Of a DNA stretch of 34,469 nt, positions 1 to 34,469 are shown one piece after another (position 1 is the stretch's first letter; each line of letters begins with the position of its first letter). Under the pieces are notes generated by a model. It saw nothing but the letters and a program-made list of their open reading frames with translations. It was not told where the DNA came from and searched no databases. The position numbers and the translations under genes were made by a program. The DNA comes from a virus. The DNA lies in the IMG/VR virus record IMGVR_UViG_3300020201_000006, positions 1 through 34,469 of that record, one strand, 5' to 3'.

Positions 1-127
1 GAGATTATACTAAATCAGATCCTAATAACCATGATTGGTATATCGTTAGAAAAACAGCTAACAAGTTTGATTTGATTGCTCAGTATCCTGAATTAAAAGA
101 AAATATTTTAAACGACAATATGGATGC
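1..127. repeat. Terminal direct repeat, left copy (circular join)
   Basis: Bases 1-127 are identical to 34343-34469. The portal reading frame continues across the join without interruption, so the contig closes into a circle of 34,342 bp. A repeat of exactly 127 bases equals a common maximum k-mer of short-read assemblers, so it most likely reflects assembly of a circular or circularly permuted molecule rather than a packaged terminal repeat. Confidence 0.95.
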
Positions 128-24102: not shown

Positions 24103-24828
24103 TTATTTCCCTTTTGTTGGCGCAAGTATCTTATTGATAATTGCTGTTAAATTTGGTTTTTCAAAAGATTCTAATTTTCCTGATCTATCTTTAGCGAGAT
24201 AATTTTCTCCAGTGCTAGTTAAAAGCAATCTTTCTTTTTTCCCTTCAATTTCAAATAAATCATAATAAAAAACTTCATCAAAGAAAGCAGGCAAACGATT
24301 TGCAATCTTTCCAGCGATATCTACACCGTAAAATCTTCTTTGAAAATCATCTACTTCGATTTTATCTAGTGCCATGACAATAATTGCGTAAGATTTTAAA
24401 TCACGGATTGATTTTATAATGTTTAACATTGCATCGTTATATTCGCCCCACAATTTCATGGCATCTTTTTTATCAGGATGTGCTAGTTTTAATTTTTCAA
24501 CTAAGTTTTGCGATATTTCTGTTAACGAATCAACGATAACATAATCGTATTTTGCCTTTACTTCATCTGTTTGAAAAACTTTTAAAGCATGTAGAAATTT
24601 ATCATGTCTGACATGTCTTTCTAGTTCTTTACCGTGGGCATCAACAGCACAATCATATACTGCTAAATTTTTATCAGCTATGGACCTTAAGCCATTTTCC
24701 AGTGAGATAATGCAGGTCTTTAAAGGGTTGGGAGTAGTAGCAGCTAAGGTAGTTTTTCCAATACCTGATTTACCGTAGATTAAGAATGATAATGAGTCTT
24801 TAATAGATGCACTTGTCGTGGTGAACAT
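24103..24828 (-). CDS. Sak4-like RecA-family ATPase (AAA_24)
   Basis: Start chosen at ATG 24828, preceded by AAAGGA six bases upstream; the open frame runs further upstream to 24897 but there crosses the leader hairpin. The 241-residue protein has a Walker A motif GKSGIGKT (residues 19-26), a Walker B-like YDYVIVDS segment and a C-terminal half lacking the extra domains of full RecA. This is the pattern of AAA_24 / Sak4 short recombinases, which promote single-strand annealing with a cognate SSB. The adjacent DUF669 gene fits that role. It is the first gene of the leftward operon. Confidence 0.82.
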   Translation of the reverse strand: MFTTTSASIKDSLSFLIYGKSGIGKTTLAATTPNPLKTCIISLENGLRSIADKNLAVYDCAVDAHGKELERHVRHDKFLHALKVFQTDEVKAKYDYVIVDSLTEISQNLVEKLKLAHPDKKDAMKLWGEYNDAMLNIIKSIRDLKSYAIIVMALDKIEVDDFQRRFYGVDIAGKIANRLPAFFDEVFYYDLFEIEGKKERLLLTSTGENYLAKDRSGKLESFEKPNLTAIINKILAPTKGK

Positions 24829-24878
24829 TTTTTTCCTTTTAGCAAAATTTAGATAACAAAGTTTTGCTAGCTTAAAAT

Positions 24879-24902
24879 AAAAAAGGGAGTTTTGCAACTC
24901 CC
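24879..24902 (-). terminator. Leader terminator / attenuator before the leftward operon
   Basis: GGGAGTT and AACTCCC form a perfect 7-bp stem with a TTGC loop (24885-24902). Reading on the minus strand it is followed by TTTTTTATTTT, a clean U-tract; on the plus strand no such tract follows. It therefore stops leftward transcription between the promoters near 25000 and the Sak4-like ATG at 24828. This placement suggests attenuation or antitermination control. Confidence 0.8.
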
Positions 24903-28565: not shown

Positions 28566-28976
28566 ATGGAAAATAAAAAATTACTTATAGATACAATTAG
28601 CGGGATGACGGATGCTGAGTTAGAAGAAGGGGGCCTAGGGATGGCTCATGGTATGCTTTCATTAGAAGCTATCAGACCAGGGCTAAACAATAGAGAGGTT
28701 AAACGGTATCATGATCAAATCGCCAGAATCTGGCGTCTTATAAACTTAGAAGAAGATGAGATAGAAGTAGTTAATACTAACGAGTTGCTAGTCTATTCCA
28801 AAACTGTTTACGGTAACCGGTTCATTTACCCACTATGTAAGAAGAGCAGGATTTTTGCTGAGCTAACTCATAAGAAAACTTTAAGCAAGACGGATATGGT
28901 CAAGATAGAACGCCTTGGCTACACTTTTGAGTTTACGCTTGACCCTGCTCTAGGGGACATGGTCAAGAAAGGGTGA
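28566..28976 (+). CDS. Hypothetical early protein
   Basis: A 136-residue soluble protein with AAAGGATAAAGAAA before ATG. The N-terminal half is helical with a Gly/Met-rich turn (EEGGLGMAHGML), the C-terminal half has strands (ELLVYSKTVYGNRFIYP). It is the last gene of the promoter-27853 transcription unit, ending 29 bases before the IS200/IS605-type element. No family was recognised. Confidence 0.6.
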   Translation: MENKKLLIDTISGMTDAELEEGGLGMAHGMLSLEAIRPGLNNREVKRYHDQIARIWRLINLEEDEIEVVNTNELLVYSKTVYGNRFIYPLCKKSRIFAELTHKKTLSKTDMVKIERLGYTFEFTLDPALGDMVKKG

Positions 28977-29005
28977 GTAAATGGTTTATCAAGATGTTTT
29001 CACGG

Positions 29006-29150
29006 TTGACATCCTCCCCATGCCTAAAGGCAGGGGATTCCCTCTGTTAGGATACTAATGTCCTAGTACGATTTTGAAAATTTAATATTCCATTTTTTAA
29101 AATATTCGTGGCTGCGTTTATGTCTCTGTTGAGTTCTGCTCCGCAACTAC
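29006..29150 (-). ncRNA. Candidate omega RNA of the tnpB element
   Basis: In this family the RNA guide of TnpB is made from the 3' end of tnpB through the right end, with the guide taken from the flanking DNA just beyond TCAA. Here the right-end hairpin at 29016-29036 and the TCAA at 29006 fit that layout, and the guide would be read from 29005 toward 28986, beginning CCGTGAAAAC. The upstream limit at 29150 is approximate. Evidence is structural only. Confidence 0.4.
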
Positions 29151-30084
29151 ATTTCCAATTTCTTACACCCAACTCTTTAATACCTTTAGGCCCTTCAATT
29201 GAACCACAAATATTACAAGTTTGAGTTGTTAAATGTTCAGATACTTCAAAATAGTTAACACTGTATTCAAGTGCTTTAAATTCTAGTTTACGTTTTAATG
29301 TACTCCAAGAATTGTTATACCTTGATTTAGCCAGTTTGCCTTTGAGAGGTATAGAAACATTTCCAATTGCTATTAAACTGTTTGTTTTAACTAGGTTTAA
29401 AGCAAATTTATTAAATCTATCGTTTTTTATATTAGTCTTTTTTAGATGAATAACTTTAGCTAATTTAAATCTTCTAGCCCTTTGCAGTTTAGCTATCCTA
29501 ATATCGTATTTTTTAAGATCGTTGACAGAAAGCTCAATTCCGTTTGAGCAAGTAGCTGTTGTTTTTAATCCAAGATCAATTCCTATATGTTCTTTGCCAG
29601 TAGAAACTTTCACTTCGTTTGTTTCATAAGAAAAAGATATAAACCATTTCCCAACTGAGTTGCATGTAAAAGAACCTGATTTTATTTTTCCATTAATTTT
29701 GAGTGACTGCCATATTCTAAAATTCTGTTTGTTGTATTTGACAACACCTTCATTTAGCTTAATTGTTTCACCCTTAAAAGGTATCCATTTAGATGATTTT
29801 TCACCACGGTATCTAAGTTGTTTCTTTTGTTGGCGTATGTCTTTATGGAACTGTTCTGTTATTGCTTGGATAGATTGGGCGTTAATTGCAAGATACTTAC
29901 TAGCACCCTTAGTTATAGCAGTAAAATACGGATCATATTTGTGAAAATATTTACGTGATTCCTTCCATTTTTTTCTACTCGCTGAATTGAGAACGTTCCA
30001 TACAAAATTAACATCTCTGGCCATTAGGTCTAAGTGCTTAGATGTATTTTTATCTTTAATGCGGAATTTGATTGTTTTAATCAT
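29047..30084 (-). CDS. tnpB: TnpB RNA-guided nuclease (RuvC, rearranged site)
   Basis: A 345-residue TnpB with AAGGTG before ATG. RuvC-I is GIDLG with Asp170, the zinc ribbon is CNIC (290-293) and CSC (312-314), and RuvC-III is NRDINAATNIL with Asp321. At RuvC-II the usual catalytic Glu of the IEDL-type motif is replaced: the segment reads LIAIGNVS (Gly241). A glutamate at 283 in VSEHLTTQTC, where canonical relatives have no acidic residue, may substitute. Rearranged active sites are known in several TnpB branches, so it may remain a functional RNA-guided nuclease. It is the only gene of the element and probably helps the element persist by cutting the restored empty site. Confidence 0.93.
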   Translation of the reverse strand: MIKTIKFRIKDKNTSKHLDLMARDVNFVWNVLNSASRKKWKESRKYFHKYDPYFTAITKGASKYLAINAQSIQAITEQFHKDIRQQKKQLRYRGEKSSKWIPFKGETIKLNEGVVKYNKQNFRIWQSLKINGKIKSGSFTCNSVGKWFISFSYETNEVKVSTGKEHIGIDLGLKTTATCSNGIELSVNDLKKYDIRIAKLQRARRFKLAKVIHLKKTNIKNDRFNKFALNLVKTNSLIAIGNVSIPLKGKLAKSRYNNSWSTLKRKLEFKALEYSVNYFEVSEHLTTQTCNICGSIEGPKGIKELGVRNWKCSCGAELNRDINAATNILKNGILNFQNRTRTLVS

Positions 30085-30133
30085 TTAATCACCTTACCAC
30101 ATAGTGTTGTAATTAAGTCAAGTACTTTATACT

Positions 30134-30173
30134 CCCATAGCTGAAGCGAGGGGCTTTACGCATCACTTGGTAA
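30134..30173 (-). other. Left end of the tnpB element with TTAC target
   Basis: On the minus strand TTAC (30173-30170) is followed twelve bases later by AAAG (30157-30154) and an imperfect hairpin with loop TTCA whose arms lie at 30153-30151 and 30136-30134. This matches the cleavage-site, guide and hairpin order of IS608-type left ends. TTAC would also serve as the TAM for the TnpB nuclease. Confidence 0.7.
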
Positions 30174-30573
30174 GTAAATTAGCTATCTTGGTCGTTTTGA
30201 TAATTACGATTGTCTTGTCATCTTCTCCGGGGATCTTAAAAGAAGTGGACTTGCATATTAAGCTATCGTCCAGCTTTAAAGCTTTGAACATTGCATCGGT
30301 TAAAGCTTTTCTAAAGTTATCATCGTCTCCAACAGTTTTTGATATTGATCCTTTTGAAGTGACCAAGCCTTTAAGATAAAAATAATATTCTATTTCAATG
30401 TATTCTTTCATCGGATTAATTTCTAAATTTACTCCTGACTCTCTAACTATTCTCATCACAGTATTTTTATACGCTTGAGCTTTCGGATTAATGCGACGGC
30501 CACCGTACATTGAATTGCCGTATAGTGAGTTGGTTGAAGTTGGTTTTCCGGGTATTGTAAAAGTTAAAAGCAT
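30163..30573 (-). CDS. rusA: RusA-family Holliday junction resolvase, 3' end changed by insertion
   Basis: A 136-residue endonuclease that resolves four-way junctions in phage DNA before packaging. The start MLLTFTIPGKPTS is typical, and the active site is visible as DDDN (83-86) with Lys89 and the Asp pair at 102-103, matching the DxDN..K...DD pattern of RusA (Asp70, Asp72, Lys76, Asp91 in E. coli). The last codons lie in the left end of the tnpB element: the frame ends at TGA a few bases inside the insertion. Removing the element extends the frame by about 12 residues to a TGA complementary to the end of the gene at 28976. The catalytic core is intact, so activity is probably kept. Confidence 0.88.
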   Translation of the reverse strand: MLLTFTIPGKPTSTNSLYGNSMYGGRRINPKAQAYKNTVMRIVRESGVNLEINPMKEYIEIEYYFYLKGLVTSKGSISKTVGDDDNFRKALTDAMFKALKLDDSLICKSTSFKIPGEDDKTIVIIKTTKIANLLTK

Positions 30574-33796: not shown

Positions 33797-34469
33797 GATC
33801 ATCGAAGATCGATAAAGATACTTATTGGGCAAGTGTTTCAACGGATGAAATAGCCGATAATATGTTAGAGAAAATAGATCAGTTTTATGATTATATTCAG
33901 CTATCAGGCAGGTTAGGCTTATACCTAAGATCATACAATTATTATTATAGACCAAGAACAACAGGTGCAAGATTAAATTCGGTTGGTGAGCAGGGCGAAT
34001 TAACAGCACTGTCAATCAATCATTATAGAAATTTACTAAGTCACATTGAAACAATGACTACACAACAAAGACCCTTCTTTGAACCTAGAGCAACAAACAA
34101 CGATTCTAAGTCACAGGCGCAAGTTATTTTAGCAGCTGGATTATTAGATTATTATTTGGGTGAGAAAAAACTAGAAAGAAATATTAAACTAGCTGTTAAA
34201 CAATCATTAATCTTAACGGAAGCTTTTATCCAAGTTGAGTGGGACACACAAGCAGGTGATAAATACGGGATGACTGAGACAGGCGCAGAAATCAGGCAAG
34301 GCGATATTAAATACACAAATTACACTACGCTAGATGTAACTAGAGATTATACTAAATCAGATCCTAATAACCATGATTGGTATATCGTTAGAAAAACAGC
34401 TAACAAGTTTGATTTGATTGCTCAGTATCCTGAATTAAAAGAAAATATTTTAAACGACAATATGGATGC
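33793..34469 (+). CDS. Portal protein, N-terminal part (continues at window start)
   Basis: ATG 33793 overlaps the terminase stop as ATGA. The frame stays open to the end of the window and continues at base 1 through the 127-bp overlap. The N-terminus starts MRSSKIDKDTYWASVSTDE and continues with a Tyr-rich helix (FYDYIQLSGRLGLYLRS), typical of podophage portals. Bases 34343-34469 duplicate 1-127, so the last 42 codons are shown twice in the window. See the entry for 1-1424. Confidence 0.85.
   Translation, partial: MRSSKIDKDTYWASVSTDEIADNMLEKIDQFYDYIQLSGRLGLYLRSYNYYYRPRTTGARLNSVGEQGELTALSINHYRNLLSHIETMTTQQRPFFEPRATNNDSKSQAQVILAAGLLDYYLGEKKLERNIKLAVKQSLILTEAFIQVEWDTQAGDKYGMTETGAEIRQGDIKYTNYTTLDVTRDYTKSDPNNHDWYIVRKTANKFDLIAQYPELKENILNDNMD
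34343..34469. repeat. Terminal direct repeat, right copy
   Basis: Identical to bases 1-127 with no mismatch. It should be collapsed to one copy when the circular genome is drawn. Confidence 0.95.

What the first reader, a model, noticed from the sequence alone, without database searches (positions are those of the whole stretch)
29006..30169. A tnpB-only element in a phage with IS608-type ends and a definable guide
The ends can be placed to the base. The left end has TTAC then AAAG at the hairpin foot; the right end has GAAT at the hairpin foot and terminal TCAA. These are the cleavage and guide tetranucleotides of IS608-type elements, seen here around a lone tnpB. The natural guide read from 29005 leftward starts CCGTGAAAAC, and TTAC would be the TAM. 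TTAC joined to this guide sequence is exactly the predicted empty site, so TnpB could cut phages lacking the element and drive its own spread between phage genomes.
Basis: partly seen in the sequence, partly recalled or inferred. Interest (0 to 1): 0.8.

Follow-up and report, generated by a model that had tools for sequence, protein, structure and literature searches.

The report
Lone tnpB transposon in a phage
A phage genome carries a small, intact IS200/IS605-type transposon that holds only an RNA-guided nuclease gene (tnpB), with a guide that matches the DNA next to it; its ends and guide RNA are well supported, but it is a further example of a known kind, and its spread between phages by cutting is not shown.

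Summary
Window 29006-30169 (minus strand) is a tnpB-only IS200/IS605-type element with the IS608 tetranucleotides TTAC/AAAG and GAAT/TCAA at the stated places. Comparison supports both ends: homologous elements begin TTTAT|CAAATGG or TTTAC|CAAACCC and end GATGTCAA|, and one Acinetobacter relative has an uninterrupted empty site in seven other species. The TnpB lacks the usual RuvC-II glutamate (Gly241) but has the known 'alternative' one (Glu283), which places it in a described clade and argues against a dead, TldR-like protein. The apparently complete phage has no TnpA, so movement must be in trans. Spread by cutting element-free phages is plausible (such a drive is reported for plasmids) but untested. 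No related phage with TTAC plus this guide was found; the one relative with the same neighbourhood lacks element, target and TTAC and has an extra small gene there, so the exact ancestral empty site is unproven. The element also supplies the stop codon of the neighbouring rusA. New member of a known kind.

The parts
29006..30169 (-). whole tnpB-only IS200/IS605-type element (1164 bp)
   Evidence: left and right ends fixed by comparison with homologous elements
29047..30084 (-). tnpB, 345 aa, intact; RuvC D170, alternative E283, D321; G241 at the canonical E position; zinc-binding C290, C293, C312, C314
   Evidence: Pfam/NCBIfam; alignments; fold matches TnpB, Cas12f and Fanzor2
30170..30173 (-). 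TTAC flank: cleavage/target site and predicted TAM
   Evidence: direct reading; homologues have TTTAT or TTTAC at this place
30154..30157 (-). AAAG, left guide tetranucleotide (GL)
   Evidence: direct reading; IS608 GL = AAAG
30132..30153 (-). left-end imperfect hairpin CCCCTCGCTTCAGCTATGGGAG
   Evidence: direct reading; 88-91% identical over about 32-34 nt to Campylobacter/Helicobacter sequences
29037..29040 (-). GAAT, right guide tetranucleotide (GR)
   Evidence: direct reading; IS608 GR = GAAT
29016..29036 (-). right-end hairpin with bulged T, also stem of the guide RNA
   Evidence: covarying stem; same motif in bacteria and an archaeon
29006..29015 (-). AGGATGTCAA right terminus; cleavage site TCAA; ATGTC is the 3' side of the pseudoknot
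29041..29051 (-). guide-RNA helix P2 (CCT...AGG)
   Evidence: covariation in alignment A4; the window's own P2 is offset by one column in that alignment
29053..29068 (-). guide-RNA stem-loop P1 (UACUA-GGACAU-UAGUA); loop pairs with AUGUC at 29008-29012
   Evidence: all five P1 pairs change on both sides among 24 sequences
28986..29005 (-). natural guide CCGTGAAAACATCTTGATAA (first 20 nt)
   Evidence: position directly after the right terminus; no other match with 3 or fewer mismatches over 16 nt in the window
30163..30573 (-). rusA-like gene; the last codon and the stop lie in the element's left end
   Evidence: Pfam RusA; with the flanks joined it would be 12 residues longer
28981..29005 (+). 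tentative: first codons of a small gene (MVYQDVFT) cut by the element; L014 has an 89-aa gene starting MKLLQDIF at this place
   Evidence: weak, short match

Best explanation
A non-autonomous IS200/IS605-type transposon carrying only tnpB inserted 3' to a TTAC beside rusA in a tailed phage, probably mobilised by a host TnpA acting in trans. tnpB and its right end produce an RNA-guided nuclease whose guide is the phage DNA next to the right end. It should bind and cut DNA in which TTAC directly precedes this guide sequence, that is, the same site without the element: excised copies, or co-infecting phages that still have the empty site. Repair from an element-bearing genome would then keep or spread the element. 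Shown by sequence: intact ends, ORF, guide-RNA structure, catalytic triad in its alternative layout, and absence of TnpA. Inferred: expression, cleavage, repair and spread.
For: TnpB family and fold. Catalytic layout D170/E283/D321; the alternative glutamate is kept in 77 of 78 scorable genome relatives, with Gly at the canonical place in nearly all, and matches the Ealt definition in PMC10711439. Ends match the IS608 code and homologous elements, with an empty site seen for a relative. Guide RNA covaries, including the pseudoknot with the terminal TGTC; a comparable pseudoknot is required in ISXfa1 and seen in the ISDra2 structure. No Y1 transposase in the phage, whose contig ends overlap by 127 bp, so it is probably complete. 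Drive by TnpB reported for plasmids (PMC11870625).
Against: No RNA or activity data. No related phage with the empty site was found. The syntenic relative L014 differs in gene content at the spot, so a deletion next to the element cannot be excluded. The left hairpin has mismatches and could be weakened. Most relatives read here sit next to TTTAT/TTAT rather than TTAC (L049 and C. fetus have TTAC), so recognition of TTAC by this TnpB is by position only. No consensus promoter was found on the minus strand near tnpB.
Confidence: 0.8

Rival explanations
1. A nuclease-dead, TldR-like RNA-guided repressor taken over by the phage, since the canonical RuvC-II glutamate is replaced by glycine.
For: Gly241 aligns with the catalytic E of ISDra2 TnpB; phage-encoded TldRs exist (PMC13418256).
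Against: The alternative glutamate (E six residues before CxxC) is present, and all three catalytic residues are invariant among 25 aligned relatives; the transposon ends are intact; the guide reads the flanking phage DNA rather than a distant promoter, and no second good match lies in the phage.
Confidence: 0.05
2. A passive, stranded passenger: ends and guide RNA are relics of a recent insertion, the protein is not used, and the element will decay.
For: No TnpA in the phage; imperfect left hairpin; element absent from the related phage records searched; insertion shortens rusA.
Against: Intact 345-codon ORF, and every tested guide-RNA helix is still formed although both the sequence and the protein C-terminus have diverged from relatives.
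Confidence: 0.35
3. The element sits in a site that was rearranged after insertion, so TTAC plus guide was never an intact ancestral site.
For: L014 has an 89-aa gene between the same two neighbours; the window keeps at most its first eight codons.
Against: Both element ends are exact and TTAC flanks the left end; a deletion stopping exactly at the right end would be a coincidence; the joined site is TTAC|C, the sequence IS608 prefers; the match to the L014 gene is only a few residues.
Confidence: 0.2

Closest known systems
IS608 (ISHp608) and IS608-like elements of Helicobacter/Campylobacter (IS200/IS605 family)
   Same: TTAC, AAAG, GAAT and TCAA at the same places; subterminal hairpins with a bulged T; left end 88-91% identical over about 32-34 nt
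   Different: no tnpA; TnpB only about 26% identical to the C. fetus TnpB aligned, which keeps glutamate at the canonical position
IS200/IS605 elements with D-hydrophobic-G/Ealt TnpB (Acinetobacter, Competibacteraceae, Burkholderia, Pseudomonas; Acinetobacter phage HFM1; Salmonella phage LPSTLL)
   Same: about 35-42% protein identity, same RuvC layout, same RNA helices and right terminus
   Different: most have TTTAT/TTAT flanks; several carry tnpA; the window's tnpB C-terminus is in another frame relative to the RNA stem-loop
ISDra2 TnpB
   Same: fold and right-end guide RNA with pseudoknot
   Different: canonical glutamate and a different TAM (TTGAT)
TldR repressors in prophages
   Same: TnpB-derived, encoded by phages
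   Different: TldRs have lost the nuclease residues and target host genes; this one keeps a triad and its transposon ends

Membership tests
IS200/IS605 family, tnpB-only element | subterminal imperfect hairpins with cleavage and guide tetranucleotides | tested here: met
IS200/IS605 family, tnpB-only element | insertion 3' to a short target without duplication | tested here: inconclusive
   TTAC flank present; empty site shown for a homologue but not for this copy
IS200/IS605 family, autonomous member | Y1 HUH transposase TnpA | tested here: not met
   no PF01797 match in the whole record; so filed only as a non-autonomous tnpB-only element
TnpB RNA-guided nucleases (Ealt, D-hydrophobic-G clade) | RuvC D, E, D with E six residues before CxxC | tested here: met
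TnpB RNA-guided nucleases (Ealt, D-hydrophobic-G clade) | right-end guide RNA with pseudoknot adjoining the guide | tested here: met
   (structure conserved; expression not tested)
TnpB RNA-guided nucleases (Ealt, D-hydrophobic-G clade) | RNA-guided DNA cleavage | not testable with these tools
   needs biochemistry
TldR repressors | loss of RuvC catalytic residues | tested here: not met
   D170, E283, D321 invariant
Homing/gene-drive element between phages | related genomes with the uncut empty target | tested here: inconclusive
   none found among seven pattern hits and the related phages; few relatives are held

The most novel reading that the evidence does not exclude
A phage-borne TnpB of the alternative-glutamate type acts as a self-reprogramming, RNA-guided homing endonuclease: after each insertion its guide is set to the new empty site, so it eliminates or converts co-infecting phages that lack it, without carrying its own transposase.
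Probability: 0.3. Interest if true: 0.6.

Novelty: new member of a known kind. Interest (0 to 1): 0.38.

Why it matters
tnpB genes are common in phages (359 of 50,697 phage records match this protein by tblastn), but what they do there is little studied. This copy has defined ends, a defined guide and a predicted target, so it is a clean case for testing whether TnpB drives an element through phage populations as it is reported to do in plasmids. It also shows that the alternative-glutamate TnpBs share a covarying guide RNA whose stem-loop is kept even where the overlapping protein tail has diverged.

Tried and rejected
Single-protein scans of viral contigs with TnpB, RusA and the 28566 gene, and of genome contigs with TnpB, found nothing. 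A Sak4-like protein (24103-24897) brought back only the L014 contig. Two portal relatives (L012, L013) lack rusA and the site. A wobble-tolerant empty-site pattern gave seven viral hits, none clearly related. A strict rule that the last base of the left guide covaries with the last base of the TAM was considered and dropped: relatives with TTTAT have A, C or G there. Rfam: no match at gathering thresholds. No consensus promoter on the minus strand. An open frame antisense to rusA (30167-30379) is taken as chance. The Pseudomonas L105 empty-site search gave no full-length clean junction. The left-end DNA folded alone does not give the expected hairpin as its best structure.

Full report
What was checked. 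The window is a whole IMG/VR virus record of 34,469 bases. Its two ends share an exact 127-bp overlap, so the genome is probably complete. Among isolated phages its terminase is closest, at about 25% identity, to a Silvanigrella-associated phage; 20 related terminase loci were fetched from viral contigs.

The element. On the minus strand, tnpB (30084-29047, 345 aa) lies between TTAC|CAAGTGATGCGTAAAG-hairpin and GGGAAT-hairpin-AGGATGTCAA|CCGTGAAAAC. IS608 uses exactly CL TTAC, GL AAAG, GR GAAT and CR TCAA, and prefers TTAC followed by C (PMC5934647); the joined flanks here read TTAC|C. Because TTAC occurs twice in tandem, the left boundary needs outside evidence. Related Acinetobacter elements with unrelated flanks read TTTAT|CAAATGGAGCGTAAA, and a Campylobacter fetus IS608-like element reads TTTAC|CAAACCCAGCCGTAAAGCCCC. 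Both put the boundary at 30169. The right terminus GA[TC]GTCAA lies at a nearly fixed distance behind the tnpB stop in about 70 of 80 genome loci. For one relative (L064) the two flanks, joined, are found contiguous in seven other Acinetobacter species at 87-97% identity. The sequence runs straight through the junction (TTAT|TGCTTATG in L064, AT|TGCTTATG in five of the seven); six of the seven differ by one T in the T run just before AT. A 35-nt exact copy of the right end occurs in three other viral contigs, and near copies occur in plasmids of many bacteria and one archaeon.

The protein. Pfam and NCBIfam call it TnpB. The best relatives are about 40% identical. The canonical RuvC-II glutamate is Gly241. 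A glutamate six residues before the first CxxC (E283, E-HLTTQT-CNIC) fits the 'Ealt' definition of PMC10711439, which also describes a clade with a D-hydrophobic-G RuvC-I motif like the DLG here. D170, G241, E283 and D321 are invariant in alignments of 11 and 26 sequences; 77 of 78 scorable genome relatives have the alternative E. The predicted model (mean pLDDT 85) matches ISDra2 and ISFba1 TnpB, Cas12f and Fanzor2. A dead, TldR-like protein is therefore unlikely.

The guide RNA. The 80 nt before the right terminus align in 24 sequences. P1 (UACUA-GGACAU-UAGUA here, CGCUU-GGGCAU-AAGCG in others), P2, the right-end hairpin, and a pseudoknot between the P1 loop and the terminal AUGUC give 97.5% paired cells, a covariation score of 0.634 (shuffles 0.194 +/- 0.018) and only 36-54% paired cells when slid by 1 to 3 columns. 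In the window four of the five P1 pairs are A-U, yet the stem still forms, and it lies in another reading frame of tnpB than in relatives, so it is kept as RNA. The folded right-end RNA is more stable than shuffles (z = -3.4). A pseudoknot adjoining the guide is part of the ISDra2 structure, and one is required for ISXfa1 activity.

Setting and history. The element overlaps the end of a rusA-like gene: its first bases CAAGTGA complete a Thr codon and add a Lys codon and the stop. With the flanks joined, RusA would instead end RENILINHLLTLS and overlap the convergent gene 28566-28976. The closest phage with this neighbourhood, L014 (65% in terminase, 35% in RusA), has no tnpB and carries an 89-aa gene between the two neighbours. 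The window may keep the first codons of that gene (MVYQDVF against MKLLQDIF), so gene content at this spot has changed, and it is not certain that TTAC plus guide is exactly the ancestral site. L014 has no TTAC plus guide match. No tnpB was found in eight related phage records, and no related phage with the empty site was found. The phage has no Y1 transposase.

How it most likely works. Insertion by a TnpA supplied in trans, then RNA-guided recognition of TTAC plus guide. With E283 in place, cleavage of element-free copies is expected, followed by repair from an element-bearing genome. This rests on known or reported biology: TnpB as an RNA-guided DNA endonuclease (PMC8612924, abstract only) and drive in plasmids (PMC11870625). 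Its operation between phages is inference. A stranded passenger remains a real alternative.

Verdict. New member of a known kind; moderate interest.

Noticed in passing
window 1-127 and 34343-34469: Exact 127-bp direct overlap of the contig ends; the portal gene runs across them, so the genome is probably complete (about 34,342 unique bases).
   Followed up: partly
window 30163-30573: rusA-like gene ends with a stop codon supplied by the inserted element.
   Followed up: yes
L014 3697-3966: An 89-aa gene between the 28566-homologue and rusA that is missing, apart perhaps from its first codons, in the window.
   Followed up: partly
L016 1-1193 and 3041-4429: Two copies of the large terminase gene on one viral contig; duplication or assembly error.
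   Followed up: no
L002 (Acinetobacter phage HFM1) and L003 (Salmonella phage LPSTLL): Two isolated phages also carry alternative-glutamate tnpB genes with the same right terminus and no tnpA nearby; in LPSTLL the gene is annotated in one record as a head morphogenesis protein.
   Followed up: partly
L045-L124: Alternative-glutamate TnpBs of IS200/IS605 elements share a covarying right-end RNA; the window's copy has no match in Rfam 15 at gathering thresholds.
   Followed up: partly
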